A stretch of 64,000 nucleotides of DNA, from the NCBI GenBank assembly GCA_015501075.1, contig JADNYJ010000089.1, forward strand, positions 1-64,000. The letters are read 5' to 3'. Position 1 is the stretch's first letter; every line of letters starts with the position of its first letter. Source of the DNA: Gymnopilus junonius. Lineage: Eukaryota; Basidiomycota; Agaricomycetes; Agaricales; Galerinaceae. Position numbers and translations under genes: made by a program. Positions 1 through 50,474 of the stretch are shown in pieces. A model generated the notes under the pieces. It worked only from the letters and a program-made list of their open reading frames with translations. It was not told where the DNA came from and searched no databases.

Positions 1-92
1 GGATAAATCCCGGAGAAAACTCACTTGTTAATTATTGGGTCAGGTCTGTTTCAAATGAAACCTAAGGAAAGCATAGTCAGCGATCGTCCTTC

Positions 93-1416
93 TCAATACG
101 TTTGAAATAAATAAAAAAGCATCAGAAGAAATGGCACTGGCAAGTACACTATGCGCCCCTTACGGAGCCATTCATTGTTTGTCCTTTCAGTCTTTCCCTG
201 TACATATGACAGTTCATTAGTCCTTGATTTGCTGATATGGGCTCTGGAATATGGTAAAGTCTCATCTGCCATAATTCCAAGATATTTATATTGTTCCACT
301 TTATCAATAGTTCCATGACGCGTATTGAAAGTTAGGTTTTTAAATCTCTCCTTTTCATTAGAATCAGAGGACCATAATATTACAACAGACTTTGGCAACA
401 ACATCTCCATCCACCAATATTTGCACCAGTCTTCGAATTCTTCCAAAAAGGCTTTCAAACTGTCAGCACTTTCATGAAGACTTACTATATCATCAGCATA
501 CAATAATCCATATAATGTGCCATCAGAGCTGGATGTAATGTTTCTGTCAGGTGTTCTGACCCTGCCATGAGGGTGAAGGAACTCAAGTATATTCAAAATG
601 AATATAATGAATAGTACTGGTGAGAGGGGTCACCTTGGCAAAGACCTTGCCAAAGTTCATAAGAATCACCATCCTGACCTCCTGCACATACAGTCATGAG
701 GGTTCTCAAGTAAATTTTCCTTATTAGGCTAATTAGCTTTTTAGGGAATTTAAACTTCCTCATACACACCAATGCAAGCTCTAGCAGAACTTTATCATAA
801 GCCTTTACCAGGTCTATGAATACCACAAAAGTGGTGTACCTTTAACAATTAAGTCAAGGTTATATTGGCATCATATGACTTCTGCTAGCACAGTGAATTG
901 CCCAATAGCTTCTTCACCTGGTCAAAACCCTCCCTGATTTTCATCAAACAAATCTGAGATTGCCATATGTTTATATGTAAATTTTGTAATGACCCCAGTT
1001 AAAATTTTCTGGAGGATGCTGATCAAGGTAATCGGCCTATAATTAGTTGGCATTTCTGGATCTTTCCCTTTAAAGAGTGAGACTATGATGTTCTCTTCCC
1101 AAGCGACTGGGATTTCCTCATCATTCCATACTTTGCTAAGCAGGTTCCAAACTGCTTTTCTGAATTTCATCAGAGGTGTTGTTGGCAATAAATCAAAAGG
1201 TAAATCAACCTGGGTCCCCTCCCACTGAGTTCTTCCAGGTAATAGGTTGGTTTGTAATTCTGCCCTTGACTCCTCCCTAACCAATGCTTTAAACAAATTA
1301 ATGTGAAGTTTGTCCTTACCAGGGGATGTATTGTGGTTCATACCCCTGATCACTTCCAGAACATCTGGCCACATTAAGATTGGCTCCAAAGGAACCCCCT
1401 CATTGTTGCTTTTCAT
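93..1416 (-). pseudogene. LINE reverse transcriptase fragments
   Basis: Three blocks in different frames form one decayed RT. At 922-1416 the finger region is readable, with the SPGKD motif and NYRPITLIS, ending at ENQGGF. At 593-826 is the palm motif A segment VFIDLVKAYDK, then an LCQGDP motif B. At 93-596 is motif C, LLYADDIV, with the two catalytic aspartates, followed by thumb-like sequence. Frame changes between 826 and 922 and near 595 break the gene, and the C-terminus is lost by about 93. No promoter or 3' tail is visible. Confidence 0.85.
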
Positions 1417-2039
1417 TTCTTTTAAAGTATGGATAGTTGACTGCCAGTAACATGAATTATGTGCATATCGTCATGGATCATCTTGATGTAGTGATTTATA
1501 ATGCTCAGTCATCACTTCTAACACCTCATCAGGGTCAGAATGTAATATGTTATTTCTGTCCCTTATTGGTTGTGTGGGTTTCATCAGTGAACCAATGCAT
1601 CCCATACTTCCAGTCTGGTGTGTGTGCTTACTGGCTCAATTCCATGCAGACTTTAAGTCCCCAGCTAGCATGTCATCAGAAATTCTATTAAATTCTTTCA
1701 CACATTGAGACTTTTCCCACTTATCAACAGCTATATGAAACTTAAGCCTCCTGTGGTTCATTTTATTGTACCTACTAATTGACAGTGAGCCTGTATACTC
1801 TTCAGTTGCTCTTCAGTATGTCTTTTCCATGGATTGAATATATTTTGAGAAATGTTTAGGGGCTTTTTTCTCATCAACAAGATCTTTCTTTATACCAAGT
1901 TGTCTGGTAATCACATCAAAGTCCTCATTAAAAGTGTTGCATATTTCATCAATGCTGCCCTCTAAACATGCCAATGGTTATGGTTAGCAATAATTTCCCT
2001 GTTACCATTGATTCTATCCCTGTTAAAGACAACTCTTTT

Positions 2040-3305
2040 CCTATTAGGAACTGCCAAAACTTGCACTTTAGCAGTTAATAGTACAGGTCTATGATCACTG
2101 GCATTGTACTTTATCAGAACTCTAGGTCATTTAAAATAAGGTTTAACCATGTGGTTCACTAAGACATGGTCCAAGTTACTTGGATTCCCGAACTTGGGGA
2201 ATCTAGTTAGAGAACTACCCTTTGTCATTTGGTGAAAGACACCATTATTCCATTTACCTAGGATATGATCTAATGAGTCATAAGGCTCATTAAAATCTCC
2301 TAGTATTACAAACTTTGAGTCTGGTCTGGTACTACGAGTTTCAATTATAATTTGACACAATGTGGAAAGGATTTTTTTACGATCCCTTCTATGGTTCCCT
2401 CCTGATGGAAGGTACACTAAAAAGATGTCCAATTGGATTGTACCTATTGGAGTACTCCAGCACAAAACTTGTACATGTAGAAGATGCTTTTCTACATGGG
2501 GGATTTGATACGATGGTAACAAAGTATCTATGAGGATGGCTTGTCCTCTAAATCCCACTTCCCGATCTATACCATAAGTTTCATAGCCTTTAATAACTAA
2601 AGGCTGTCTGGCACTGTTAAATAACATTTCCTGTAAACAGGCAATGCCAATCTTCTGGTCATATAACATTTTCGCAATGTAATTATACTTGGAATGAAAA
2701 CCATTAATATTCCAGGTTACAATATTTGAAAACAGAATTTGGTTGGGCACATTCAGTTGTGCAACTACCTCTGATGTTGCTAATTTTTGTTTGTTCCAGG
2801 GGAGCCATGGAACACATTGCCACTTCGATGGAAGTGTATTCCCAAATGATCTAGTTCTCATATCATTCGAGAAAAGCAATTGTAACTGGGTGTCTGAATC
2901 TCTGAGCAATTCTCTGAAATGTCATTTCCATATATCTGCAAGTTCATTCTTTACAGAAATAATTATGTGGGGTCTATTTCCACATCCAGACACTCTATCT
3001 ACTTTAATAATAGCATGGAACCATGCTGCAACTAAGCTTTGTTGAACCACCACATAAAATTGCTCTTTAGTAGTGTCTCCCATATTAAAAATAACAAATT
3101 TTGGGTACTTAAGATTCGTAGATCTGGGTTGGGCTGATATATTTATGTGCAGAGCACTTGGTGCATTAACCTCAGCCATAGAGTCAATGTCCAATAAAGA
3201 AGGGTTGTTTGTCAAATCTATATTGAGATTAATCATTCCATCCACAATAGATGGGCATAGGATAACATTTATCTTTGGCACTACTAGCCCACTTAACCTT
3301 TTCAT
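2040..3305 (-). pseudogene. LINE endonuclease (EEP/APE-like) domain with upstream N-terminal segment
   Basis: The apurinic-endonuclease-like domain is readable from about 2790 down. Motifs in order: VTWNING, the catalytic glutamate in ACLQE, GDFNEP (Asp and Asn), NLDHV, and finally NASDHRPV just past the TGA at 2127-2129. The final SDH motif is in the same frame as the rest, so one stop codon separates it from an otherwise complete domain. The preceding ~130 residues (3305-2925) end in another in-frame TGA and have no recognised domain. The family nicks DNA to prime reverse transcription. Confident in the domain; inactive because of the stops. Confidence 0.85.
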
Positions 3306-3455
3306 AAGGGTGGTGTTTGAATTTTCATGTTATCATACTACTTGCATGTTGTGTCCAATAAAAGCCAATCCAATAAAGCAAAGGTCATGCAAAGTACTTG
3401 GCCGAAACAAAATTAATATTCAAAAAAGACAAGAATACAACTAAGTACTATATAA

Positions 3456-4668
3456 CTAAGTTTTCTTCTTGCCTTTGGTGGCAGAGGAGGGGCCAGCGGT
3501 GGATTTCGGGGCAGGCTTTGCTTTCTTCTGTGACTTATCCTGAGGGTCATCAGTGGTGTGTTTCTTCACCATCTTCAGTTCCAACTTCATGACCCTCTTC
3601 TCCAATTCACTGATCCTCATCTCCAACACCTTCACCCATTTCTCAACATCCATCTGTGATTTCTCCAATGTTATGTCCAGGACAGTACCATTGACCTTGA
3701 TGATTGAGTACCCCCCCTGTTCTCGCACCTTATTCATCATCCCCACCAACAGGCATTGAGTGTGGTCATGATAGTCAGCATAGGGGGGGCCTCTTATACA
3801 AAATGCACACCTTTTGACCATTCTCCATTTGGTCTCTTTCCCATTGGTCTGCATTATGAAATCCTTACAAAGGTCAAGGTCTGCATTGACCACCCGGACA
3901 ACCCCTGCATTGACCACCCAGACAACCCAAACCCCAGAAGGTTTGCCATTGGTGAAATAACTAAAGTAATCAAGTAAAAGCATTAGTAACATTCAGATGA
4001 TTGGATAAAATCTTACCATCTAAACATCACTGCTGCGGCACCATTTACTTGCTTGCTAAAATCCTCGAGGTCCACCAACCCATGCTTCTGATCAGGAATG
4101 GTAGCCTCCCAGCAAGTTGAGGCACTGCCAGACTCGAACGGAGATTCAATGGGTAGGGGCCATGCCACCCACATGTCCATAAAGTTCATGTAGTGTGGGC
4201 CTTCATTTTGTTGTCCTCCAGAGAGGTCCTCGAGCATGGAATGTCCATCTACATCTTTCCATGTAAAAATATTGCTGTGTGTCATGATTGATGTGGATGA
4301 TGGGATTGTCTCTACTCTGGCCTTAATGGCCTTCATCAACCTGGACACCAAGAGACTGCCATCTTTGGAGAAAGCCTGATAAAATGTGGTCAAGATAATG
4401 ACCATCTGCAAGCATAAATTAACATGCAGGTTATATGAAACATTAAGCCTGAACATACATTCATTACTCCGAACCCCCCGACAAATGCCCCAATTGACTT
4501 CACAAATTTGTCGGTGATATTGGCTTTGAACCTTGCGGTGTCCACCATGTGCATGGCAAAGTGCATGGCCACCTTCTCTGTCATCATGATGGCCTGGTTC
4601 TTGGAGAGCTCAAGTTTCCCCGTCTTCTTTTGTGAGGCAACAGCAGCAGAAGAGATAGCGATAGACAT
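3456..4668 (-). CDS. Three-exon zinc-knuckle / coiled-coil protein next to the LINE
   Basis: Unrecognised protein of about 367 residues in three minus-strand exons: 4459-4668, 4017-4405 and 3456-3960. Intron 1 (4406-4458) has donor GTATGT and acceptor TTGCAG, phase 0. Intron 2 (3961-4016) has donor GTAAGA, a CTAAT branch-like site and acceptor TTTAG, phase 2. The frame is open throughout. Exon 3 has a CCHC-like pattern C-X2-C-X9-H-X4-C beginning CAFCIRG, then a heptad-like coiled coil (VLEMRISELEKRVMKLELKM) and a Lys-rich tail. Position just upstream of LINE ORF2 and the gag-like motifs suggest an ORF1, but introns should not survive retrotransposition, so it may be a host gene or a captured one. 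I chose ATG 4668; ATG 4698 is also in frame. Confidence 0.6.
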
Positions 4669-5454
4669 GTTAAGAGTTGGAAGATGTGTTAGATGCACAA
4701 GTTAGAAAGCAAATTTCTGGGGATTCCTGTACAAATCTCCTCTCTTTTATATCCACCATACTTTGTTTGTTTCCTTCTATTCCCAAACAGAATGGCATGG
4801 AACATTGCCTTTGTTCTTACCAATCTTCCCCCCCATCTTTGCTAAGGATGTTCTTGGCAAAATTGTCCTAACCCCAATGGATACTGCGTGGAGGTGTGGG
4901 GGTCCAATCCTATCCAAATATGGCCTTCAATTTCCATGCTTATCCACCTGATTTCACATCTAATTTGAGCATATGACAACAGGATGATTACCCTATATTC
5001 ATTTATAAGGGCATGCACAGCGTGAAGGTATCAATGGCTAAGTTTGTAAGACCAGCCTTAAAACCAATGGAAATACCCCTTCCTCTTTGAGGAATCTCAA
5101 ATTTTACAAAGATGGGTGTTCAAATCTTAGAAAAAGCATTCATTTTTCATCACACCATTTGTCTAAGTACTGGGGCTGCAGCCTGTTCCAAAGTCATACT
5201 AAGCAGGCTACTAGACAAGGCCATCTTAGATCAGTTACCATCTAAAAATTCAAATAGGCCTACTCATCAGTGCGTCACTTCAACACTGATGGCGAGGTAT
5301 GGGTATCATGCTTAAGCACCATCGTTTCCAGGATTTCAGTGACTTTTCAGTCCCAAGTTGTCACACATGATGCCATCCATCAAAACATTCATCAGAAAAC
5401 AGTTGGTTCTCACTTGAATATTCCTTTGAGAAACCCTAAGTAACTAGCAGTACT
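4669..5454. other. AT-rich stretch without a recognisable gene
   Basis: Upstream flank of the zinc-knuckle gene and of the kinase-like pseudogene. Short open frames exist (for example 5112-5315 on the plus strand) but none has a motif, a convincing start context or splice support. It may include the lost N-terminal part of the kinase-like pseudogene that follows. Confidence 0.5.
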
Positions 5455-6150
5455 ATGGCAACCTTGAAAGAGAAGGGGCTTGAGTTCAAACATGCCACAT
5501 ATAGCACAGAGGTGTATGAACTCCTTGCTGAATCTGGATTTGCCCCTCTGTTGTTTGTCAAATTCAACCCTGATCTAGAGAAGGAATTGAAAGATATCAG
5601 CAAGTGGAAAGAATTTGAGGCATTGAGTCCTAAGCCCTTAATCCATTACATTTTGATGCAGTATCTCACTCTGCCAACTGAGTAAGAAGCAGGATATCTC
5701 AATCTTGATGAACTCAAAATTGAAGATAGTGTGGCTGCAGTACAGGCAAAAGACAATATCAAAAAAACTTTGGAGGTTGTATTACATATTCTGAAAGGGC
5801 ATGGTATGGTCCATGGGGATCTATGCCCTGCAAATATCTTGGTAAATGTGAAAAAGATCAATGGCTCTTGCTGTCTCTACAGGAGGGAACAGGACCCACC
5901 ACTTGTCAATCTGAAAATCATAGATTTTGACTAGGCTGGCAGATAGGGAGAAGGGCTGTATCCAGCAGTTAGAAATCCTAAGGCCCCATTTTGACTGAGA
6001 GGTGTTGGAGAGGCAATCTCCACAAATGATGATAAGAAGATGATTCGCTCATGGATGAAGGAATGGCCTAGCTCTACACCTGAGAAAAAGAAGAGAAAGT
6101 CTGGACAGAGGATGTCAATGAAGGTCAAGGTCCAGAAGTAACTTACACAA
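5455..6150 (+). pseudogene. Protein-kinase-like pseudogene
   Basis: The frame beginning ATG 5455 reads through to about 6140 with in-frame stops. Around 5806 is HGDLCPANILV, matching the kinase catalytic loop (H-x-D-x4-N) with Gly in place of Arg. About 30 residues on, KIIDFD is followed by a TAG stop and AG, fitting the DFDWAG-type metal-binding loop I associate with basidiomycete kinase-like proteins, where the stop replaces Trp. Another stop lies at about 5683. The glycine-rich loop and N-lobe lysine are not recognisable. Family assignment rests on the C-lobe core only. Confidence 0.6.
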
Positions 6151-6426
6151 TCTGTGCCTTGGTGCTATGCAGATGTGCTGGGTGGACTCCCTGCTTGTCA
6201 AACTTTCCATTGATGGTGTGTGTCAGCTCTATGACCTACTCCAGAAGGATTATGAAAATCCAGTATATAAACCTATCATTGAAGCAACTTGTAAGGCTTG
6301 GTACAATGACCTAAAGTAAGTTAGTTTGATCACTTTACTTGCAGTTTCTTATAGGTTTCAAAACATAGAGATCGATCCAAGAAAAAAAAAATCACACAAA
6401 CCCCATCCTGCTAAGCAGTCAAATCT

Positions 6427-6590
6427 AGCTGGTCAGCAGCATTTTCCCACTCCCCAGCAATATCCACCTGCTCAGCAGCATTTATCTACTTCTTCACGAT
6501 TTCCACTTGCTCCTCTACAATTTCTGCTCCCTCAGCAGCATTCACTCCTCCTTCAGCAGCATTCACTCCTCCCTCAGCAGTATCTGACTT
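6427..6590 (+). repeat. CAG-rich tandem repeat encoding Gln-rich peptide
   Basis: Imperfect tandem units of about 24-30 bases built on CTCAGCAGCATT and CTCCCTCAGCAG. An open frame at 6326-6592 translates them as repeated PQQ/LPQQHS blocks. The repeat follows the kinase-like pseudogene on the same strand, so it could be the low-complexity tail of that gene, but I see no splice sites that join them. Confidence 0.6.
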
Positions 6591-6599
6591 GACAATTGT

Positions 6600-7689
6600 G
6601 GTCTTACCCATGCTGGCATCTCCAAACACTCCAATTCAGTAGAATTCCATAATGGCTTAATGCAAGATGTCAGTGTTGAAGACAGTGCAAAATCCAGAGG
6701 CTCTACCTTGAATGTAGCATGATGCAGTAAGATAAGGACATATAAAAAAAAGATGATAATGGTGGTTGAAGAAAAAGATGTAAACTGTCAAAATTTAAAT
6801 GGCAAGGAAAGCTTGTTGCAGATTCTCGGCTAAGCTGACCCAGCAGTGGCTCTTGCTGCTGACAAAGTTGATATGTTTTCATCCACTGGCTCTCAGATAT
6901 GACTCAATAATGATGACAAGCCAAATCATGCAGGTTGGCTAGTGGGTTGTGTATGACTTTTGCTCTTGCAATTTCTGAGCCAGAGGTAAATGCTTGGATT
7001 GAGATACTGAGATGGTCAAATCAATAGCATGTAATACTGTAGAAAAATGAGAGTGACTCACTGTGAAGGCTACTACCACCAGTGAGCTGAGATTGAGAAG
7101 ATTGTTGGTGGACTGAACACTGCAACTGCAACTCAATGTGTGGGAGAACATGCTTCACCTGCACCTACAACTCAATCAGTGGGAGGATAGGCTAAGGCTG
7201 ATGTCATGACTGCCTCACATTTCCCTCATTCCCCTCATTCCATTTTCCCCTGTTTCATTCTTCAATCATCTATGCCTCTCCCATGTGCTGCAGCCTCTGT
7301 AGTAGCCTTGCCTTATCCATATGCTAACCTCATGGACTCTTATATATACTAATATGGTCATTTCTACTTAGTATAAATACTGGTTGGTTGTAGTAGATAG
7401 TCTTCAGCTTCAACTTGGTTTAGCCTCAGTTCTGACAGCTGAGGTTGATGATGCAGAGGTTGATAAGGCTGAGACTGAGGCTGTAGTTCAATCAATGGGA
7501 GAAGGTCATTTGAAGGAATAGCCAGATAGGTCAAAGAGAGAGATTTGATTGATTTGCCAATGTTTCTATAGGCAGAGAGCTCTGGTAGCCAAACTCCTGG
7601 GGAATCTTTTGAATATGTGAGTAACAGCAACATCTAGGGTGCAGAAGCTAATGCACCAGGTAACAACATTCAAGGATGCTGTTCCTCTA
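6600..7689. other. AT-rich stretch, no intact gene
   Basis: Degraded sequence. A minus-strand frame at 7364-7633 (89 codons, Gln/Leu-rich C-terminal half) is the longest open stretch, but it has no motif and lies next to one arm of the inverted repeat. No RNA gene or terminal repeat is evident. Confidence 0.4.
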
Positions 7690-7921
7690 CCCTCAATGTT
7701 TACTTGGTGAAGCTGATCATCAAATCCATAGCTGTCATATTTTTGTAAAACAGATTCATGCAGTAATTGATGGGCATCTCAGTGCTATCTGTATATTTCA
7801 TCCAACCCTACCAGGTGATGTGACTTGAGGTTTGGAGAACCTATTCATTCTAAGAAAACTTTTAAGTTCAGTGTGTGACCTGGTGCCAAACCTACCAGTC
7901 TAGCACTATCACCCTAGTCTA
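7690..7921 (+). repeat. Left arm of ~235-bp inverted repeat flanking the Rep-like gene
   Basis: The reverse complement matches 11000-11234 over the whole length with scattered differences. The best conserved core is GATGTGACTTGAGGTTTGGA at about 7814 and the sequence after it. Both arms, read away from the Rep-like gene, give similar short peptides (for example GWMKYTD versus GWMQYTD), so the repeat may derive from a coding fragment. No target-site duplication was found at the outer ends. Confidence 0.75.
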
Positions 7922-8875
7922 CTGATAGGGTACCTACTACATGACTACCCATAAATTTTGTATTTTTACTATATTTATATTGGAATACTAGGCACAAACA
8001 CAACCCATCTCAATGTGCTGTTTCCATCAATATCATGAGGTGACATGTTCTCTCCATAATTTCTACTCATGATATACTCTATCCTATCCTTTGCATGCAC
8101 CTTGTACCCTTAGATTGCACTGGAGCTTGGCAACAAGCTTAGACATGTTGGTGACCTCTAGACAACAATAAGATTATAAGAGGGAGGGTGAGGAAGCTTC
8201 CCAAATGGTGGAATAAGTGAGTTTATGATTACTGTTCTTTCAACAAGTTACTTACAAATGTTCTATAAGCAAATATTTTCTGATGCTGCTGCTTGTCATC
8301 AATCAAACCCCCAGCTTCTTTCAATGTCATAAAGAGACAATGAGCAGCATGGTCAAAAACACATGTTTAGCTTTCTATGTCATTGACCTAGAATGTGTCC
8401 ACTTACCCTTCTGCATAGCTTGCCTACTGGATGAAGCTAAGCCATCTTCATTAGAATAGGCTGAGATAATAGACTCAGTGTCTATCAGAGGATTGGACTG
8501 ATAACTGATTTACATAACAAGGTATAGTATATAGAAAGAATATATATACACCTATGCTCTGTGGGTCTTGTTCTTTGACATTCCTAATTTGGTTGTTCTA
8601 GACCAGCACAATCCTATACTTTTTGTAATAAGTATTAGAGGACAACCAGTGAATAAATTACTTTCCAAAAATATCCTTTGTGAACAAAAACTAAAATAGA
8701 ACCTAAAATCAAGTGAAAAGGCTATTCTTACTTATCAATGCACATCTCACAATCTTTGTTTATAAATAGAAGTAGAATTAGTAAGTGTTAGAAATTTATT
8801 AGTAATATTAGCTACTAGATGAGTAATCTACTTACTAATCAACATATTTGATCACATGGATGTCCTTCTCTAGCA
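7922..8875. other. AT-rich sequence upstream of the Rep-like gene
   Basis: About 1 kb between the left inverted-repeat arm and the Rep-like promoter. No open frame of interest. It carries several TTACTAAT/AGTAATA words near 8800-8850 and a nonanucleotide-like hairpin, listed separately. Confidence 0.4.
8800..8817 (+). promoter_or_regulatory. Small hairpin containing TAATATTAG
   Basis: TAGTA and TACTA form a 5-bp stem around an 8-base loop. The nine bases TAATATTAG at 8803-8811 differ in one base from the TAATATTAC origin nonanucleotide of geminiviruses, which also sits in a hairpin upstream of Rep. It lies about 120 bp before the Rep-like start codon. In AT-rich DNA such a short match can arise by chance, and part of the motif is in the stem rather than the loop. 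Confidence 0.25.
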
Positions 8876-8883
8876 TATAAATA
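8876..8883 (+). promoter_or_regulatory. TATA box of the Rep-like gene
   Basis: TATAAATA begins 56 bases before the ATG at 8932, with pyrimidine-rich sequence between. It is plausible for a fungal promoter, but no other promoter element is recognisable. Confidence 0.4.
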
Positions 8884-8931
8884 GTCAGTACAATAATCTA
8901 AAAGCCCATCAATTCCTTTCTCTTTACATCT

Positions 8932-10302
8932 ATGTCTTGCAACAGAACTCCAAGACCTAGCCACAGGAGAGCTACCAGGCCATATGAGCATATTATGGTT
9001 TTAGATCCTCTTGCCAGTCAGGGAGAAGCTATGCAGGGACCCACCCAGGAAGATAGCAACATTCCAGGAGAGGACCTCCAGGGTGATTTTATTACACACC
9101 AAAGACAGGGTGCTACAAAGTTTAGGTTTTCTGCAAAAACATATTTTCTGACTTATAGTCAGGCAAGTATTTCATTACAGTACATTCTATTCAATTGTTA
9201 ATGCATTTTTTAGATTGGTGACCATTCTTGGGCAATGCTAGAAGCAGTGTTCAACAGAATGAACAAAAGACCCAAATGGTGGGCAGTCAAAGAGCAACAT
9301 GCAGATAGAGGCTGGCACTGGCATGTACTGGTTGTTTTTGACACTGTTTATCGTGGAAAGAATCCACATGTGTGGGATGTTGATGGAATACATCCTAATA
9401 TCAAAATGTGAGTATTCTTTTTAAGCTATTTTACCAGACTACTTATATATTATTTAGTGTAACACGTTCATATGGGGTAGACAGGGTTGCTGCCTATATG
9501 AGGAAAACTGGCAATCCAGATTCCTCAGGAAACTGGTGTCCTCCAATTGTAGATGAAAACAATATGCCTAAACAAAAAAAATGGGCATATATAGCTGATG
9601 CAAGTCTTTTATTTTGCTTTAGATTATTAAATTACTAACTTATCTCTTTTTAGTCTAAGGATGATGAGGAGTTTAATGCTAGATTAAGGGTCCATGCACC
9701 CTATGAAATGATCAACAATCACACCACCTTGAAAGCATATAGTAAAGACAAATTTGCTGCCAAGTCCCAGCCTTACAAGTCCAAATGGAAAAAGGAAGAC
9801 TTTCAAATGTGCCAAGAGTATTGAAGGACTGGGTAAATAAGTATGTTGAAGGTGAACCTGGAGATCGCCCAAAAACACTTTGTTTATGGGGACCTACACA
9901 TACTGGCAAAACACAATGGGCCAGAAGCTTAGGTGAGCTATTTCTTGTATTTTGTACTAAATCAATCAGTAACCATATTCCTCAGGTCATCATGCTTATA
10001 TGAACCTAACATTCAACTCTGACAAGTTGAAAGATGAGACAGTGGATTATGCTGTCTTTGATGATATTTCTTCTGATCAAATGAAGGGAAACAAGTACAA
10101 AGCATTTTTTGGTGCTCAAGAAGAAATAGAAGTAACAGACAAGTATCGGCCCAAGAGTACTCTTCATTGGGGAAAGCCACTTATCTGGCTATCTAATGAA
10201 GATCCAGAATTAGATCCTAATTTTGACCAACAGTGGCTGAAGGGAAATTGCATTTTCTATTATTTAGATTACAAGTTGTATGAATCTTCTGAGGATCAAT
10301 GA
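8932..10302 (+). pseudogene. Endogenous CRESS-DNA-virus-like Rep (HUH endonuclease + SF3 helicase), intron-bearing, one frame break
   Basis: Five exons: 8932-9162, 9214-9407, 9458-9599, 9654-9932 and 9986-10302, together coding for about 387 residues, usual for Rep. The N-terminal HUH domain has motif I FLTYSQ at the end of exon 1, motif II WHWHVLV in exon 2 and motif III VAAYMRK with the catalytic Tyr in exon 3. The helicase has Walker A GPTHTGKT in exon 4, Walker B YAVFDD and motif C IWLSNED in exon 5. In viruses Rep nicks and joins the origin and unwinds DNA in rolling-circle replication. Introns 1 and 3 use GCAAGT donors, 2 and 4 GTGAG donors; phases agree everywhere except inside exon 4, where a one-base deficit near 9806, between the two domains, shifts the frame. 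Fungal genomes are known to hold geminivirus-like Rep insertions; presence of introns points to long residence in the host. Confidence 0.85.
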
Positions 10303-10354
10303 TTTATGCATTCTAGAATACAGTATATATTTAAAGTCAATATACATGTAGTTG

Positions 10355-10422
10355 GCTATCAGAAAGAAGTGCAGAGGTGCTAGTAAACAGATTTGATCTT
10401 TTTATAGATAGACATTTGTTAA
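10355..10422 (+). repeat. Dispersed direct repeat, copy 1
   Basis: About 68 bases, containing GGTGCTAGTAAACAGATTTG, nearly identical to 12940-13007. Similarity stops abruptly at ...CATTTGTTAA in both copies, after which a different repeat begins in this copy, suggesting an insertion junction. Confidence 0.75.
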
Positions 10423-10426
10423 GCAC

Positions 10427-10563
10427 CTATAGGCTCTACCCTCTACCCATCCCAATAAAGCAATATCTGACTTCCCACCTGCCAAATTTTGTGCCTGACT
10501 ACCCAAACAGGAAGGGCACATGGTGGACTACGCTTTCCAATAAGGCAATATTTGACTTTCTAC
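10427..10563 (+). repeat. ~130-bp dispersed repeat, copy 1
   Basis: Starts GGCTCTACCCTCTACCC and ends GGCAATATTTGA. It matches the reverse complement of 14868-14992 at most positions, including a shared TGTGCCTGACTACCCAAACA. The size and ends suggest a MITE or the terminus of a larger element, but I see no clear terminal inverted repeat or target duplication. Confidence 0.7.
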
Positions 10564-10995
10564 TAGCTATTTCTTGTGCTTCCCTAGTTAAAATAAACAT
10601 GACAGGATGGATCTTCTTCACATATGATATCATATAGCAATACCTTTTTTTACAAACTTTACTATTCATTTTTCTGGCTTATTATCTTTCTTACTCTATA
10701 TCATATATATGCTAAGAATTTCTATAATATATGCCCTAGTCTTTGTTCTGAGCTATCTATCTTTACTTTCAGACAGATCAAGATTGCTAAATAATAGCTA
10801 TCAAGTAGGTCTTTAGATTTCTTAAGATAAGTAACATTTATGGTATTCAAGCAAAAAATTATTCACCTAGCTGAGAACCCCTACAGAATCACTCATGTTT
10901 ATTAACAGAGCAATCCTATGCAGAGCACCATAGTGGTAAATGTGACCAGAAAGACCATTGTACATCCCAACCCCTCAATGGATGTAAAATAATCA
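10564..10995. other. AT-rich stretch between the dispersed repeat and the right IR arm
   Basis: No gene. Contains runs such as ATATCATATATATG and no open frame of note. Confidence 0.4.
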
Positions 10996-10999
10996 CCTT

Positions 11000-11234
11000 G
11001 CAGACTAGAGGGATAGTGCTAAACTGGTAAGTTTGGTGCCAGGTCATACACACTGAACTAACAAGTTTCCTTAGAATGAATAGGTTCTCCAAACCTCAAG
11101 TCACATCACCCAGTGAGGTTGGATGCAATATACAGATGGTACTGACATACCCATCAACTACCATATGATTCTGGCCTACCATGATATGATGGCTATGGAT
11201 TTAATGGTCAGCCTCATTAAGCAAACACTGAGGG
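11000..11234 (-). repeat. Right arm of ~235-bp inverted repeat flanking the Rep-like gene
   Basis: Inverted counterpart of 7690-7921. The shared core includes CCAAACCTCAAGTCACATCA and ATAGGTTCTCCAAACC. Beyond 11240 and before 7690 similarity fades, so the pair is bounded at about 235 bp. The Rep-like gene is the only recognisable gene between the arms. Confidence 0.75.
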
Positions 11235-11239
11235 TTGGG

Positions 11240-12939
11240 AATTACAATGACCACCAAGGCTATTTCTGAACTACTGCTAAAATCACATAAGTGCATCAAC
11301 CAATGAAAAAGTAAGCACATTTAGCAGCATAGCATTAGCTATGGCCTGCACTGCACCACCAATAGCAGCACCATCTACAATGACAACCACATCACTGTCA
11401 CCTTACATCCAATGAAGGGACATATCCATGTTTATGTCAACTCTGATTTGGAGGTGCCTATGAAAGAAATGCAAGTCAAGACAGAGACATACAGACCATC
11501 TTGCAACAAGGACAAGCACATGAGGCAGTTTTCATATGCACAAACTTGGGGTGCCAGTGGACTGGCAGTTGGCAGTAGTCACATTCATATATACATGTAA
11601 ACTTAGTGAAGAGGACAAGAATTCTATGCAATTATCATCATTGAGCTCATGGCATTTTTTCCTTTAAATGGTTCAGCAACTCCTCTATCTGAGCTGCTTC
11701 AGCAATTGGCAGCCTGTTGATCTGCTTTCAAGGCTACCACTCTACTAAGCATGGCCTTGGGGGTCATGTCTGATGTAGAGGATGTAGTAGTAGGGTTGGA
11801 AGGGGCCATATGTAAGAGAGAGGGAGAAAGAGAAAGATATATAAGTGTTATGATGCTTTATTTAGATGTGACCTGTGCTAATTATAGTAATACATATATG
11901 CACAAAAAAAATCTGACAAGAGCCCATGAAAGAAAGTGATAGTGACATCAACCCCATGTGAGAGGCAGTTTTTGATTTGTGGAGGGAGCTTCATATTACT
12001 CCCATACTCTGCAAAGTCAATGAATCACATATGGCTAGTGCCCAGAGCATCCTTGGCCTCTGTCACCAGCCTTTCAGTACAAGGGGTTACCTAGGCATTA
12101 TCAGTGTCAAGTTGAAATGTACCATGGTCAGCAGGTTGATATTGGGTTATATATTTGGATTGGATCCTCATATCCATAAAAGCAGCAGCAGGAAGCAGAC
12201 TGGATTCTGGGTGTTTCTACTGACATAAAATTACAAAATTAATCCTATTTAATGAAAATTTAATGCCAAAGGAGTAGGGGGTGGTCTGAGAGCCCTTGAT
12301 TTGGTCAGTCAAGAAGAAATCAGACACATTGAATTCTCCTCCAACTTTGCATTTGACTGCCATATGTCAGAGTGCCAAACACTTCAACAGGCCTTGTGGT
12401 GTCTGGCACCAACATTGGCTGACCTGGATGGGTTCTTGGAATGTAAGGTCTATATTGTAGACCATTGTTTTGATTCAGACATCAGATTTTTGTACAGCAT
12501 CTGACAGGCACTTCAAAGCCAGAAAGTACCACCTGGCCTTAAATAAAGGGACTGCTACCTGCTGTACCTGATGATATACTAGGCCAGCCAGAAGCAATGG
12601 CATGGTAGTGACCAGGAAAGGGGCCACACTGCTCAGCACCTGGTTTCTATTTGGCAGGATATGCTAGGTGATTTGGAGCCTAAGTCCATACCCTATGACC
12701 ACATGGACAAGGCAGCTCCCTCTGAGTGGCTGGCCTGCAAACTCAATATCAATTTGTTGTTGAAATGGGGTATATGTCCCCCCAGCACCAATAAATTTTG
12801 AGCAATGCATTTTGAACCTAAAGAGTCCCAATCACCACTGTCACTAGTTTTCCAGAAGCAAAGATGGGCACCAATTATGCAAAACCTGTTTCTAGCATAA
12901 ATCAAGAGATCAAGAATTGAAAAATTGGAAATAGAGATG
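11240..12939. other. AT-rich, CpG-poor stretch with decayed coding traces
   Basis: No intact gene. On the plus strand 12301-12900 reads as several open pieces separated by single stops, with protein-like composition, which looks like an old gene or transposon fragment. I recognise no family. Confidence 0.35.
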
Positions 12940-14867: not shown

Positions 14868-14992
14868 CCTCAAACATTGCCATATTGGAAAGGGTAGTCT
14901 ACCCTGTGGCCTTCCTGTTTGGGTAGTCAGGCACAAGATTTGGCAGATGGGAAGTCAAATATTGCCTTATAGGGAAGGGTAGAGGGTAGAGC
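14868..14992 (-). repeat. ~130-bp dispersed repeat, copy 2 (inverted)
   Basis: Reverse-complement match to 10427-10563. Near its left end is the palindrome GGGTAGTCTACCC, degraded in the other copy. Confidence 0.7.
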
Positions 14993-16560
14993 CTATATTA
15001 CAAAGTTAGATGTTAACTCCCATATATTACTAATCATAGCTCTACTCTACCCATTTACCTAGATCATGTTTCAAAGCAATGGCAGTTAAAAAATGAAAAG
15101 TATGGACTTTTGGTTATCAACCTTTTATTCTATCTTTTCTCATATTCCCTCTTTGAGCTTTGGAAGGGCTTCAATATTTTAACTTTCAATGTATTTATAA
15201 TAATTGAAGTGGTATACCCTTCAGACAAATTAGATGATATTGGAAATCAAAAGAAAGATCTACTAATTCTAGCAAGACCATGCATAGAAAGAAAATGAAA
15301 ACTGCCAGATTTGCAGAAAGGACAGTCACAGTAGGACAATTGCCACCTGTGCAGGCCACAGCTGCAGCATGATGGGGTTGTTGTATAGATCAAACTGCAG
15401 GCCTGGGCATGGGAGACCTGCACATTGAACCTTGAGCAAAGCCATCAATGTCACATGTAGCAGGACCCTATCTTGAATTCTGTGGCACTTTACCCTCCTA
15501 GAAAAACTTTACATTCAAAGTTGAATGCAAATTGCAGTCCACCAATAATTGCTACACTTTATCAGTTCTATAATCTGTCTAACTCTTACCAAGCTGCCCC
15601 CTACCCTGCCTAGCAGCACTCCAAGTCTTGCATTCTTGTTAAAGTGGTCTGCATGTCAACTCTGGGAACTCTCACTCCTTTCACTATTCACAACAGGGGG
15701 AAGAACTGGTCAAAATAGCAAAGACCATCCCATCTATCATCCATCTAGCTCTGATTCTGGATTCTGATTTGTTACTATTAGAAAATCTTAGTATAAAGAT
15801 GTTATATCCCAATGTGTGTAATTTTTGGACATACATTTTTTTTTTGAGCCCGTCTTAGGGATCATGACAGAATTTGCAATTTGTGGAAAATGTCTTTTGA
15901 AATAGGCAATACAAAGCTGATGCATAAATTGGAACAGACAATTAAACTTGCTTGCACACAAAATAGGTCATTGGGGGTACAGCAATGCCTCTCTTCTTCT
16001 GTGTCTGAGCTAATTAGATTGATTTTTATGTGAAAATTTCCAAGCAAGAATGTGGGATATTGCAAGTGAGTGAGACCTTTGAACTCTATACCATGCCATA
16101 GGAGAGGAATGCAGAGGCATTTGAATGGGAATTGTGCTAGGATTAGAAGATGCAGAAGGTGAGTTTGAAGAGCATAAAATCAATTATGGAACTGGGACTA
16201 TGAAATTTATATGACAGTCTTCTGTGCCCCCTAGTCCTGCTTATTATTTCATTCCTTTGGTTACTCCCTGCTTAAAATCTCTCAAACATATTTAAAAATT
16301 ATTCTCAGGGCACTATACATACAGATTTATGTCATATCATATGATATAGTGAGTAAGAATATTTTTTCAGTCATCTATACTCTATGGTAAGTGTTATGGA
16401 GTAGTCAATGTCAGGTATTCAATATTGGGCAGTGGTAAATGTTGAGTATCAGCCATGAAAATCTCCCAGTGGCATATGGTCAGTGAGAAAGATGAGAAAA
16501 GAAATTTCGTTTGTCAGGGCCCTGCAGAGTGCTACACTGATACTTTGAAGATGGAGAGCT
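14993..16560. other. AT-rich stretch up to the next gene
   Basis: No intact gene. The frame at 15549-15767 has a Ser/Leu/Pro-rich plus reading and a broken minus reading; neither is convincing. Base composition changes sharply near 16540, where the CpG-rich gene region begins. Confidence 0.4.
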
Positions 16561-16783: not shown

Positions 16784-19306
16784 ATGCCTAGCTCAGCTTC
16801 CCATTCTAGCACCGGCAGCAAAGCCAGGCCGCCATTTATACCCGGAACACCCTTTCTCTCTGAATCCCCAGCATGGGTCGACTCCCGCTCCCCTCGTCCT
16901 CGGAGTGTCTACACCATGAACATCGATTACTCAGGTCGAGCCCATCCAAACACTCTACTGGATAACCAACCCCAGAACCCCCGCTTCTCAGACGAACTGC
17001 GCTCGCCCATCCCACCTCCGCCCGCGAATCTCTATCCAGGCTCGCCAGCTGCATTCAACGTGGATCCTAACGTACCGTTCCTCGCTACAGCTGGTCCTAG
17101 CGATGCTCGTGCCTCTGAAGATGGTGATAAGGAGGAGCCCCAGTCAAGTCGATTCGTCGGCGGGTTTGTTACTGGGCTTAGGAAGGCCGTCAGGAACTCG
17201 CTGAGGCGGTGTCGACCTGTACAGTTGGAGCAGCAGCAGCAGCAGCAGGAGATGTACGCCCAACCGCCTGAACTTCGAGATTCCGGATACGCCTCCTCCG
17301 CGCCCCAAGCAGGTCCATCCCAAGTCCCGCCCATACCCGACTATGGCTCTTCACCGGCTTCATCCCGGAGTACCCCTGTCTCTGCCCGTCCTCCCTCCGA
17401 GACTCTCGTAGGCCATGAAGATCCTGTCTCAAAATTTCCTCGTAAACCTCAAGAAGAAGATGAGTTCACCATAATCGACCCCATTCCCTCCCGCTACCGG
17501 CCTTCCCACCGGCCTTCCCGTTCCCATCCCTCCCACCGCCGTCCTCGCAATGAAATCATCCCTCCCGACACGATCATGAGCCCCGTCTCAGCTGATCCCG
17601 AATACGGCTCGGACTACGCCCAGATGAATCCACCCACGCCGCCGCCATCTGATACCTCCTTCAACACGTATCTCTCCCGCATCTCCAAAGTCGTGAAGGA
17701 CATCAACAGTCTGCCGTGGGTGATGAAGGAACGCGTAACGGTTGATTACTACCCTGAAAGATCGAAGAGGAGGGATGAGCCGAAGCGACATCCAGCAATC
17801 GCGTGGCGGAGCGAGGAGTATTATCGGGTGGAGTACGAGCGTGAAGCGCAGGCACAGGCGTTTGGTGGAGGTGGGGAGGGGGATTTGGCAGATCGGATGG
17901 GCGGATTGGGTATGTCGGAAGCATCAGCGAGTGCTGTGAGGCTTATCACGCCCCGTCGAGCAGCGGTTATGGATCTAGACGCGGAGTTTGACCCTACGCC
18001 GCGTCCAACGCCCTTACCCGCCAAACCGCCGAATGTTGCGCCGTCTGCGCCTACGACTCCCTCGCGCTTTGGATTTGGGGGTCCTTTTCCTCCTCTTCCT
18101 GTTTATCCGCCCTCAGCTCAACTGCCAATTACACTGCTCACCCGAAATGCCAACCCACTAACTCCAAATCCAAATCCAACCATGCTTCCCTTCGATTCCA
18201 CCCTCTTCTCCAATCAAGCGCCTCCACCTCCAAATAATCCAATGTCGACTCCGGATTGGGATCCTACGCACGGTCCTCATATCAATGGGATGTGGCAGCA
18301 GTACTCAAGCAATAGCAATACGAACCACCAAGTGCCTGTACCCAATGCGCCCAATACGCCGAAATCTTCGAGGTCGAGGATATCGCAGCGCAGTGCGAAT
18401 GCGAGTCTTCCAGTGCAAACTCAACCTCCTCAAACACCTCATAGCAGCTACTCTGGACTCTCTTACCTCAGCCAGCCCTCTCAACCTCAGGCTCAGCCCG
18501 TCACCCCCTCCCTTTCTCAACACCGCCAACGTCTTTCAACAGCTACCAGCACCACGAACGCAAACTCACCCACACCTAGTCGCGGTGCTGGCAGTGTACT
18601 CAGGACCCACGGATACCTAAACAAAGGCAAAGGTAAAGAACGGGCTCCAGACACCGACCATGACCAAGAACCCAGACAATGGCAGTCCCACCCCGCCGCC
18701 GGCCTTCACAGTCCCCATTACGATTACAATCGCAGCCACGAGCCCAATCTCACTTACGAACACACCGAATATGATTCGAGGAACAGGAGCGGCTACGTAC
18801 CCTTCGAGGTGGCGGAACAGTATCGCAATAGGATGTCGTATGGAAGGCGGAATGGGGGTGATGGGTACCCTGCCGCGGCTGTCGATGGTAGTGCTGCGTC
18901 TGCGAAAGCGGCACGGTCGCCTCGTCCTAGTGGTGGCGGTGGTGCTGTCGACACCGCCGCCGCCGCCGCTTCCATTGCTAATGCACTCAATGCAGCATGG
19001 TCGCCTGGTGGCCGTTCTGTGCGTGGATATCCTTCTTCTCCGGCTCCTTCTCCGACTCCATCTCAAGCTCACTCTCCGTTTGTCACTGGTCCTCCTGGGT
19101 ACACTCCTCGACCTCGACCTCGATCTCAACCAGAACCTCAACCTCAATCTCAACGATCACCTCAACTACCACCTCAACCTCAACCTCTTCCTCTGCTGCC
19201 GCCGGCGGGTATCGATGCTCCTAGACCTGCATGGTCGAATTCGAAAGCTCCAGCGTCGGCATCGGTGCCTGCGCAGGAGCAGTGGGTATATTGGCCTCGA
19301 CCTTGA
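16784..19306 (+). CDS. Pro/Ser/Gln-rich orphan protein, single exon
   Basis: An open frame without introns. It is open from 16580, but the start is most likely ATG 16784 (about 840 residues, MPSSASHSSTG...), because the upstream part reads as pyrimidine-rich leader. No catalytic domain is recognised. Features in order (numbered from 16784): ordered-looking VYTMNIDYSGRAHPN near residue 43; a basic segment FVGGFVTGLRKAVRNSLRRC near 120; poly-Gln near 150; acidic DEFTIIDPIPSRY; a mixed segment SRISKVVKDINSLPWVMKER near 295; then long Pro/Ser/Asn/Gln-rich and Ala-rich tracts. It is probably mostly disordered. Codon usage is GC-rich, unlike the block to its left. Its 3' end is partly duplicated downstream. 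Confidence 0.7.
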   Translation: MPSSASHSSTGSKARPPFIPGTPFLSESPAWVDSRSPRPRSVYTMNIDYSGRAHPNTLLDNQPQNPRFSDELRSPIPPPPANLYPGSPAAFNVDPNVPFLATAGPSDARASEDGDKEEPQSSRFVGGFVTGLRKAVRNSLRRCRPVQLEQQQQQQEMYAQPPELRDSGYASSAPQAGPSQVPPIPDYGSSPASSRSTPVSARPPSETLVGHEDPVSKFPRKPQEEDEFTIIDPIPSRYRPSHRPSRSHPSHRRPRNEIIPPDTIMSPVSADPEYGSDYAQMNPPTPPPSDTSFNTYLSRISKVVKDINSLPWVMKERVTVDYYPERSKRRDEPKRHPAIAWRSEEYYRVEYEREAQAQAFGGGGEGDLADRMGGLGMSEASASAVRLITPRRAAVMDLDAEFDPTPRPTPLPAKPPNVAPSAPTTPSRFGFGGPFPPLPVYPPSAQLPITLLTRNANPLTPNPNPTMLPFDSTLFSNQAPPPPNNPMSTPDWDPTHGPHINGMWQQYSSNSNTNHQVPVPNAPNTPKSSRSRISQRSANASLPVQTQPPQTPHSSYSGLSYLSQPSQPQAQPVTPSLSQHRQRLSTATSTTNANSPTPSRGAGSVLRTHGYLNKGKGKERAPDTDHDQEPRQWQSHPAAGLHSPHYDYNRSHEPNLTYEHTEYDSRNRSGYVPFEVAEQYRNRMSYGRRNGGDGYPAAAVDGSAASAKAARSPRPSGGGGAVDTAAAAASIANALNAAWSPGGRSVRGYPSSPAPSPTPSQAHSPFVTGPPGYTPRPRPRSQPEPQPQSQRSPQLPPQPQPLPLLPPAGIDAPRPAWSNSKAPASASVPAQEQWVYWPRP

Positions 19307-48583: not shown

Positions 48584-50474
48584 TAGGGAAGAGCACGGGT
48601 CACCCGTGGGTATTCCGAGGCCTACCCGTACCCGTACCCATCAAAACCCGTACCCGTTCACCCGCGGGTCACCACGCCATGGGTATATGGGTCACAGGTA
48701 TCTCCTCAGTCACACATAGGATACATGCAGATGTCAATTGTAAGCATATATTTGAGAAATACGTTACAAGATGATGCTATCCCACCCATCCTCGAGCTCC
48801 TCCTCCTCTTCCTCATCAATATCTGGAAGCTTGGTGGCAACAAGGACATCCAAGTCCTTGACAATGAATTCACCAAGCAGAGACCAGTTGCCAAGGCATA
48901 GGAGAGCGTGAGTAGACTGAGCCGAAAGGCGATTATGGATGTGGGAGAGAATGAGGCGTCCACAACTAAAAGCACGTTCAATGTCGACAGACGTTGCTTG
49001 AAACCAAATGAAATAGTAGTCAGTGTTGTATAAAAAAGATGGAGGGCAACTCACCAGGAATTGTAAGGTAGTCCAAAGCCATATGCGATAAAGAAGGATA
49101 TGTTGTTCGGCACTCAGACCACCAGGCGATAGGGTCGTCAATGGTCTCAGTGTCCACGGAAAGGTAGCGTTCGACCTCGCCGCGTGGATCTGCTGAGGGC
49201 TTAGTGGGCTTGAGGAGATTGTCGAACATGTTCTGCTTCTTCTTGGATGAAGCCTCCTTTCGCGAAGAGGTCGAGGGCTAAAGAAAAGAAAAGAGAATGT
49301 TAGTAATAACTCATAATTTAATAAGGGCACTCACCGTCGAGTCCGTCTGAGACTGCATTGGGGTATCCTTCTCACCACTCGAAGCGAACTTGCGGTAATT
49401 TGCTTCATATTCTGCCCGGAAAATGTCTTCGGCAGTGCTGATCCACGAAGACTCCCTCGACACCCCAGCAGGCCTTCGCATGCTTGCGCAAGTTACTGGT
49501 TGACCCATTGTCCTTGGTGTCGGGATAACGCTTGACGGATGCCTTGCAGGACTTCATGAAACAGTGGAATTTGTGATAAATGCGGCCGTCGTCGTCCTTC
49601 TCAATGGTTGGGACTGGGTGGAAAAAAGCATAGATAGGTGAGTTCCAGTTTTCCATCATACATTCTATTGACTGATTAGTTTACAGATTCTTCTCAAATG
49701 TTGCTGAGCTTACCGAGCTGGGCTTCCGGGGTTTCATCATCCTGTTCATCGTCATCGTCATCGTCATCGTCTGAAACCTCAATGACGGAAGGCTGATGGG
49801 CAGAGTCATGGCGAGAAGACTTCTCCGTTGGGGTTGGGGCAGTCGCTGATTTAACAGAGGCCTAGTGTCCACATAAAGAAGGTAAGTCAAACATTTTCTT
49901 ATTTCACGCTGTGTTAACTGACCTCACTGACAGACTCCTTGTCGCTGTCTCCATTTTCCGAGGCTGACCCAGACACCTTCTTCATCCTGGGCAGAAATTT
50001 AAATAAACCCTTGCTCTTCTTCTTCGGCGGCTGCGACTTCAAGTCTAAAGTTAGTTGCACGTGCATTGTTTTTGACAGATCAATACTCACGGAAGTCATA
50101 GAAGCTTCCTCATCACTGTTGAGCACTGCTTTGCTGATTCGTTTCCGAGTCTTTGGTGCGAGGGACTTCATAGCCGCGATGGCGACGTTTTTGATAGAAG
50201 GGACCTGACCGGACCGTGTGGCATTGCCACTAGTCACGTCCTTGTCCTTCGCCATGCTGGAAGGAGAATTGACAAGCTGCCACTTAGATTAGATAGCGTA
50301 GATATTTTTTTCTCGGTGGCGTGGTCCTGTATAGTTAGTTATATAAGATTTTCCCTGATATTTATACCTCGGGTATCTCCGGGTCATGGGTCCAGTGGGC
50401 CATACCCAGACCCGTACCCATGAGTACCCGTACCCGTGACCCATCCGGGTAGGCATGACCCATGCATTTCCCTA
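48584..50474 (-). mobile_element. Non-autonomous hAT nested in the Plavaka transposase (hAT-B)
   Basis: 1,891 bp flanked by perfect 8-bp duplications CTCATCCT (48576-48583 and 50475-50482). The ends are similar inverted repeats, TAGGGAAGAGCACGGGTCA on the left and TAGGGAAATGCATGGGTCA on the right. Both subterminal zones are packed with CCCGTACCCG / CGGGTACGGG words, typical of hAT transposase-binding sites. It encodes one shortened transposase gene. Confidence 0.9.
48764..50255 (-). CDS. Core-less hAT transposase (BED finger + dimerisation domain)
   Basis: Exons 50091-50255, 49923-50036, 49714-49861, one from 49664, and further exons down to the stop at 48764. The N-terminus is Lys/Ser-rich with an acidic poly-Asp stretch; a BED-type finger follows (CFMKSCKAS, then HAKAC). 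The C-terminus is a typical hAT dimerisation domain (WWSECRTTYPSLSHMALDYL, then TSVDIERAFSCGRLILSHI). The RNase-H-like catalytic core expected between them is absent: the finger is followed within about 20 codons by AEDIFRAEYEANYRKF, normally found just before the dimerisation region. The junction near 49447 is out of frame by one base. Such a protein could bind ends but not cut. It may be a pseudogene. Confidence 0.6.

What the first reader, a model, noticed from the sequence alone, without database searches (positions are those of the whole stretch)
8932..10302. Endogenous CRESS-DNA (geminivirus-like) Rep gene in a fungal chromosome, with all replication motifs
Seen: HUH motifs FLTYSQ, WHWHVLV, VAAYMRK; helicase motifs GPTHTGKT, YAVFDD, IWLSNED; five exons with agreeing phases except one single-base deficit near 9806. 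Known: geminivirus-like Rep insertions have been reported in fungal genomes. Inference: retention of every motif and acquisition of introns suggests a period of selection in the host, or a Rep-encoding mobile element rather than a dead viral insert.
Basis: partly seen in the sequence, partly recalled or inferred. Interest (0 to 1): 0.85.

Follow-up and report, generated by a model that had tools for sequence, protein, structure and literature searches.

The report
Genomovirus-like Rep gene in mushroom chromosome
A mushroom chromosome carries a replication-protein gene that came from a small circular DNA virus, nearest to the genomoviruses, and now has four introns; insertions of this kind are already known in fungi, so this is a well-preserved new example rather than a new kind of thing.

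Summary
Window 8932-10302 (+) encodes a CRESS-DNA Rep in five exons with the HUH and SF3 motifs in order, plus a GRS-like motif. Exon 5 matches virus-type proteins (best E 4.5e-20), and named genomoviruses (7 rows, 33-44%) more closely than geminiviruses (11 rows, 23-30%; one further mastrevirus-named row 38%). Its tree branch is long and lies outside 122 relatives. Two of four introns are GC-AG. A second copy of a 20.3-kb block lies on contig C196 with the same splice sites. The window's exon-4 frame break is absent there; C196 has one in exon 5. Single-base indels between the copies pile up in this stretch (9 to 4 substitutions; elsewhere 7 to 354), so consensus error is likelier than decay. 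A truncated third copy on C153 is dead. TAATATTAC lies 121 nt upstream on the opposite strand (about 1% by chance). The flanking inverted repeats belong to another repeat. Comparable insertions are published for Laccaria, Tuber, Serpula and Pisolithus. New member of a known kind.

The parts
8932..9162 (+). Exon 1: 71 residues before motif I, then HUH motif I FLTYSQ 9145-9162
   Evidence: no Pfam or PHROG match for this piece, so the N-terminal extension rests on the open frame alone
9163..9213 (+). Intron 1, 51 nt, GC-AG (CAG|GCAAGT...TTTTAG), phase 0
   Evidence: same sites in C196
9214..9407 (+). Exon 2: HUH motif II WHWHVLV 9313-9333 and GRS-like VWDVDGIHPNI 9370-9402
   Evidence: Gemini_AL1 E 0.0045, 17.4 bits, below the cut-off of 24; over the cut-off only on C196 and only with its neighbours in the frame (27.7 bits)
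9408..9457 (+). Intron 2, 50 nt, GT-AG
9458..9599 (+). Exon 3: HUH motif III VAAYMRK 9486-9506
   Evidence: no Pfam match for the piece
9600..9653 (+). Intron 3, 54 nt, GC-AG (GAT|GCAAGT), with branch-point-like TACTAAC at 9633-9639
9654..9932 (+). Exon 4: Rep central domain and Walker A GPTHTGKT 9890-9913; one single-base frame break in this copy
   Evidence: Gemini_AL1_M on the 3' piece, 25.1 bits; whole exon open on C196, 50 bits
9933..9985 (+). Intron 4, 53 nt, GT-AG, phase 1
9986..10302 (+). Exon 5: helicase part, Walker B YAVFDD 10048-10065, motif C IWLSNED 10183-10203, stop codon
   Evidence: E 4.5e-20 to virus-type proteins; predicted fold matches genomovirus Reps best
8802..8810 (-). 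Candidate origin nonanucleotide TAATATTAC, 121 nt before the start codon, on the strand opposite to Rep
   Evidence: on that strand in 49 of 5000 shuffles of the 300 bp upstream and 52 of 5000 of the 500 bp upstream; no significant stem-loop
8876..8883 (+). TATAAATA, possible TATA box
   Evidence: read by eye; not tested
7689..7920 (+). Left arm of an inverted repeat around Rep (83% to the right arm); not specific to Rep
11002..11235 (-). Right arm of the same inverted repeat; homology to contig C154 (no Rep match there) runs past the arm end to 11652

Best explanation
This is an endogenous, genomovirus-like (order Geplafuvirales-like) Rep gene that entered the genome of an Agaricales mushroom long ago, gained or carried four short spliceosomal introns, was probably constrained for at least part of its stay, and now behaves as a resident chromosomal gene rather than an active virus or transposon. 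Shown: the motifs, the exon layout, the kinship, a second copy of the 20.3-kb block, and a decayed third fragment. Inferred: the mRNA is spliced; the product would be an HUH endonuclease joined to an SF3 helicase that could nick a TAATATTAC-type origin; the single-base frame breaks in the two assembled copies are mostly consensus errors. What it does for the host, if anything, is not shown; the likeliest roles are leftover Rep activity or interference with related viruses.
For: Motifs in order, open pieces, agreeing phases. Relatives: 8 at E <= 0.01 for the exon-5 frame alone; 908 by profile, of which 120 are listed, 87 of those 120 with a longest contig of 2.0-2.4 kb; one named row is a Gemycircularvirus. 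Identity and fold nearest genomoviruses. Splice sites identical in both copies. Single-base indels to substitutions 9:4 in window 8-12 kb, 7:354 in the rest of three aligned blocks, Fisher p 2e-11. C153 fragment: 3 stops, 10 nonsynonymous and 4 synonymous codon changes in exon 5; the window keeps the family state at 5 of 9 informative sites, C153 at none.
Against: Neither assembled copy has a complete frame. No RNA evidence. At 4 of the 9 informative sites neither copy has the family state, and the window agrees with only 23 of 31 columns that are at least 95% uniform among 122 relatives. Five one-way sites are few (chance 0.03 under equal decay, by hand). A branch-point-like pattern was found in only 2 of 4 introns. 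Raw reads were not available to test the error reading.
Confidence: 0.57

Rival explanations
1. A dead insertion: the Rep was integrated, came to hold introns, and both copies are now pseudogenes with real frame breaks.
For: A frame break in each assembled copy; a third copy is clearly decayed; most endogenous sequences of this kind are degraded (PMC3198968 section 9).
Against: Exon pieces otherwise stop-free with motifs intact; splice sites the same in both copies; the breaks are not shared and fall in a stretch with an excess of single-base indels.
Confidence: 0.27
2. A domesticated host gene (a stronger form of the best explanation): the Rep nuclease-helicase has a cellular or antiviral function and is kept by selection now.
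For: Introns, no neighbouring viral gene recognised, less decay than the C153 fragment, presence in both copies of the block.
Against: No orthologue could be examined; no expression data; only one block in the genome.
Confidence: 0.22
3. A Rep-encoding mobile element (transposon or integrated replicon) that moves by rolling-circle nicking at its TAATATTAC origin.
For: Oriented nonanucleotide upstream of Rep; inverted repeats around the gene; a Rep transposon with 37-bp TIRs is reported in Tuber (PMC3198968).
Against: One block (two copies sharing 20.3 kb) and one truncated fragment in 58 Mb; the inverted repeats occur on C154 without Rep and their homology crosses the arm end; no transposase domain in 10 flanking frames; no significant stem-loop.
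Confidence: 0.1
4. An assembly artefact or viral contamination joined to host sequence.
For: Draft assembly of 898 contigs; the C196 block changes flank at both ends.
Against: Two contigs carry the same locus within 20.3 kb of shared sequence; four introns are not expected of a contaminating virus (inference).
Confidence: 0.03

Closest known systems
Genomoviridae Rep (Gemycircularvirus and kin)
   Same: HUH and SF3 motifs with a GRS motif and Gemini_AL1_M; nearest in exon-5 sequence and predicted fold
   Different: Lies outside 122 sampled relatives on a long branch; 8 of 31 uniform columns differ; five exons; chromosomal; no capsid gene recognised; nonanucleotide ends in C, while all 12 Genomoviridae rows in the table passage of PMC6186406 end in T
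Basidiomycete Rep sequences of Laccaria bicolor, Serpula lacrymans and Pisolithus tinctorius
   Same: Rep-type sequences in Agaricomycete genomes whose next kin are Geminiviridae/Genomoviridae (PMC3198968 section 6; PMC5618006 section 23)
Tuber melanosporum geminivirus-like transposon
   Same: Fungal chromosomal Rep (PMC3198968 passages)
   Different: 42 copies, 37-bp TIRs and transposase ORFs there; none of these found here
Geminiviridae Rep
   Same: HUH, GRS and SF3 architecture; Pfam Gemini_AL1_M; TAATATTAC as the usual geminivirus nonanucleotide (recalled)
   Different: Lower identity on exon 5 (11 named rows, 23-30%; one mastrevirus-named row 38%)

Membership tests
CRESS-DNA Rep | HUH motifs I, II, III in order, with a Tyr in motif III | tested here: met
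   FLTYSQ, WHWHVLV, VAAYMRK
CRESS-DNA Rep | SF3 helicase: Walker A, Walker B, motif C | tested here: met
   GPTHTGKT, YAVFDD, IWLSNED; the exon-5 model (mean pLDDT 79) has SF3 helicases (papillomavirus E1, AAV Rep) among its best PDB rows, but weakly, best E 0.0098, none at 0.001
Gemini/genomovirus-type Rep | GRS motif and Pfam Gemini_AL1 / Gemini_AL1_M | tested here: met
   GRS-like VWDVDGIHPNI (named by comparison with GRS letters quoted in PMC8309985, passages); Gemini_AL1_M 50 bits on C196 and 26.2 in the window; Gemini_AL1 over its cut-off only on C196 with frame neighbours, 18.2 bits and under it in the window
Genomoviridae | Rep within the genomovirus clade | tested here: inconclusive
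   Nearest named relatives are genomoviruses, but the branch is long, outside the sample, and no geminivirus rows were in the tree
Genomoviridae | Circular genome of about 2.2 kb with a capsid gene | tested here: not met
   Chromosomal; 10 chosen non-Rep frames of 45-100 aa in 7566-11597 give no Pfam match; a diverged capsid is not excluded
CRESS-type origin | Nonanucleotide in the loop of a stem-loop upstream of Rep | tested here: inconclusive
   TAATATTAC present and oriented; fold z-score -0.72, 51 of 200 shuffles fold as well
Rep transposon (Tuber type) | Terminal inverted repeats bounding multiple dispersed copies | tested here: not met
Domesticated gene | Expression and purifying selection among orthologues | not testable with these tools
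   No RNA data and no relatives of the host are held (one search states that this genome has no relatives here)

The most novel reading that the evidence does not exclude
A five-exon genomovirus-derived Rep that Agaricomycete mushrooms keep and express as a working nuclease-helicase gene, possibly still recognising its own TAATATTAC origin, used by the host, for example against related ssDNA mycoviruses.
Probability: 0.2. Interest if true: 0.75.

Novelty: new member of a known kind. Interest (0 to 1): 0.42.

Why it matters
It adds a well-preserved, intron-rich Rep from another Agaricales genome to the few reported in basidiomycetes. The age of ssDNA virus infection in mushrooms, and the question whether hosts use such Reps, could then be tested with ordinary RNA-seq and synteny.

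Tried and rejected
Inverted repeats as Rep-element ends: rejected, because the repeat occurs on C154 without Rep and its homology runs past the arm end.

Iterons around the nonanucleotide: a 7-mer present three times is matched by 272 of 3000 shuffles, a repeated or inverted 10-mer by 390 of 3000, so neither is significant. Stem-loop: z -0.72. The wider pattern TAATATTAS occurs 3 times in the window, and 10 of 100 shuffles reach that; the nonanucleotide was noticed first and tested afterwards.

C196 as a plain allelic haplotig: not settled. It is colinear with window 3073-23347, but C196:1-627 and C196:20,924-45,397 do not match the parts of C878 compared (1-7000 and 16,000-104,000 of 158,539). 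Two stretches tested outside the block are single-copy and one inside is double. Rearranged haplotype, segmental duplication and wrong join all remain. My notes 20 and 38 call it an allelic haplotig; that was too firm.

Databases: four viral-contig scans gave no confirmed relative. Phages: none for exon 5. PDB by sequence: none for exon 5; for exon 2 only a sulfatase (E 0.023) and a replication-associated protein (E 0.52). PHROGs: best row an ATPase at 0.0033 for the exon-4 3' piece. Eleven phytoplasma plasmids match the gemycircularvirus Rep P0018 at 27-30%; I did not fetch them.

Literature: ten searches, open-access library only. No title or abstract start listed concerned introns in a basidiomycete Rep.

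Codon positions of substitutions against C153: 9, 3 and 7 at positions 1, 2 and 3, no third-position excess, as expected if the C153 copy decays neutrally.

On checking, the polarisation count was mended from '5 of 5' to '5 of 9, neither copy at 4', and confidence in the best explanation lowered from 0.6 to 0.57.

Full report
Observation. The stretch 8932-10302 (+) was read and translated in separate pieces. Four introns of 51, 50, 54 and 53 nt separate five exons with agreeing phases; introns 1 and 3 use GCAAGT donors (GC-AG), and intron 3 has TACTAAC near its end. A branch-point-like pattern is found in 2 of 4 introns (1 and 3). The copy on C196 has the same donors and acceptors. GC-AG introns are a small minority in fungi (recalled, no call), so two of four is unusual; both donors fit the strong consensus usual for GC donors (recalled).

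Kinship. Pfam on six pieces gives Gemini_AL1 on exon 2 (E 0.0045, below cut-off; REP_ORF2-G2P scores a little better there, E 0.0016, also below its cut-off) and Gemini_AL1_M on the 3' part of exon 4 (25.1 bits, over cut-off). At E <= 0.1 those two Gemini families match the genome only at this locus and its C196 copy: Gemini_AL1_M 50 bits on C196 and 26.2 in the window, Gemini_AL1 27.7 bits with frame neighbours on C196 and 18.2, under the cut-off, in the window; 0 of 14 control genomes match. The exon-5 frame finds 8 proteins at E <= 0.01 (37-47% identity). A profile with those finds 908, of which 120 are listed; 87 of the 120 have a longest contig of 2.0-2.4 kb, 32 shorter, 1 longer. Apart from a 1,662-nt molecule, the 12 Genomoviridae rows of a table passage in PMC6186406 are 2.1-2.3 kb. 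The one row with a virus name is Mosquito VEM virus SDBVL G, a Gemycircularvirus in NCBI taxonomy. A model of exon 5 (mean pLDDT 79) matches 39 predicted viral structures at E <= 0.001: 7 with genomovirus names at 33-44% identity, 11 with geminivirus names (family by recall) at 23-30%, 'Insect-associated mastrevirus 1' at 38%, 5 others, and 15 without a name. In a tree of 123 sequences the window lies outside the 122 relatives, on a very long branch that the program flags as unsure; the relatives were found through the window's own profile, and no geminivirus rows were included. So genomovirus-like is better supported than geminivirus-like, but membership of Genomoviridae is not shown.

Copies and frame. 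In 58.0 Mb and 898 contigs the gene matches at three places: the window, C196, and a fragment on C153; exon 2 matches at the first two only. C196 is colinear with window 3073-23347 at 93-99%, yet its outer parts match none of the C878 parts compared, so allele, duplication and wrong join all stay open. The exon-4 break of the window is not in C196, where exon 4 is open; C196 has its own break in exon 5. In three aligned blocks longer than 500 columns, single-base indels number 9 against 4 substitutions in window 8-12 kb and 7 against 354 elsewhere (Fisher p 2e-11); 7 of the 9 lie in runs of three or more. This looks like long-read consensus left unpolished where two copies are nearly identical (inference); reads were not available.

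Constraint. The C153 fragment (window 9970-10421, 90%) has in exon 5 three stops, two single-base deficits and one three-base insertion, and 10 nonsynonymous against 4 synonymous codon changes. Of 9 nonsynonymous or stop sites where at least 70% of the relatives share a state, the window keeps it at 5 (residues 3, 16, 26, 45, 55), C153 at 0, and neither at 4 (residues 34, 35, 75, 101). Between the window and C196 copies, exons 1-3 differ by two synonymous changes and one nonsynonymous. This favours constraint on the full copy but is thin.

Surroundings. TAATATTAC lies at 8802-8810 on the minus strand, 121 nt before the start codon, the arrangement expected of gemini/genomovirus origins (recalled). 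It arises on that strand in 49 of 5000 shuffles of the 300 bp upstream, on either strand in 71 of 5000, and no significant hairpin holds it. Inverted arms at 7689-7920 and 11002-11235 belong to a repeat that on C154 has no Rep match and whose homology passes the arm end. Downstream lies a dispersed repeat, 10428-10640. Ten chosen non-Rep frames of 45-100 aa give no Pfam match. A gene at 16784-19303 has 35 matches at E <= 1e-10; the best four with names are Flammula, Psilocybe, Galerina and Hebeloma (41-45% identity over about half the query), so the host is most likely an Agaricales mushroom, species unknown (lineage of Flammula, the rest recalled).

Known background. Liu et al. 2011 (PMC3198968; abstract, passages, sections 6, 7 and 9 seen) report geminivirus-like Reps in fungi, five in Laccaria bicolor and 42 in Tuber with a transposon form, and place the fungal ones nearest SsHADV-1. 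PMC5618006 (passages and section 23) finds that Serpula, Pisolithus and Laccaria sequences recognise one another first, then Gemini- and Genomoviridae. PMC6186406 (passages and section 17) places fungal insertions near Genomoviridae and Geminiviridae. PMC8309985 (passages) gives the Rep motifs of Botrytis genomovirus-related elements. PMC6668415 (passages) was looked at and says nothing of fungal insertions in the passages seen. The present locus fits that picture.

Verdict. Identity as an endogenous CRESS Rep is near certain. A resident, once-constrained gene with assembly-level frame errors is the likeliest reading (0.57). Mobile-element claims are not supported by the present evidence. New member of a known kind.

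Noticed in passing
window 93-2921 (-): Non-LTR retrotransposon remains: reverse transcriptase (RVT_1) and endonuclease (Exo_endo_phos) frames. The C196 colinearity starts just beyond them at 3073.
   Followed up: partly
window 3073-23347 and C196:628-20923: A 20.3-kb block is present twice with different flanks; aligned identity falls from 99% on the left to 93-95% on the right.
   Followed up: partly
window 10428-10640: Dispersed repeat with 18 further matches of 43-213 nt in the genome, one inverted at 14870-14997.
   Followed up: partly
window 7918-7980: Repeat of about 55 nt found at 14 other places besides C196, some in pairs 1.5-2.8 kb apart; may be part of a transposon end.
   Followed up: no
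window 10876-11652: Stretch 78% similar to C154 over 782 columns, where it is inverted relative to a second shared stretch (window 7224-7437).
   Followed up: partly
window 48764-49330 (-): hAT-like dimerisation region, below the Pfam cut-off.
   Followed up: no
window 375-383 (+): A second TAATATTAC, inside the retrotransposon remains; probably chance.
   Followed up: no
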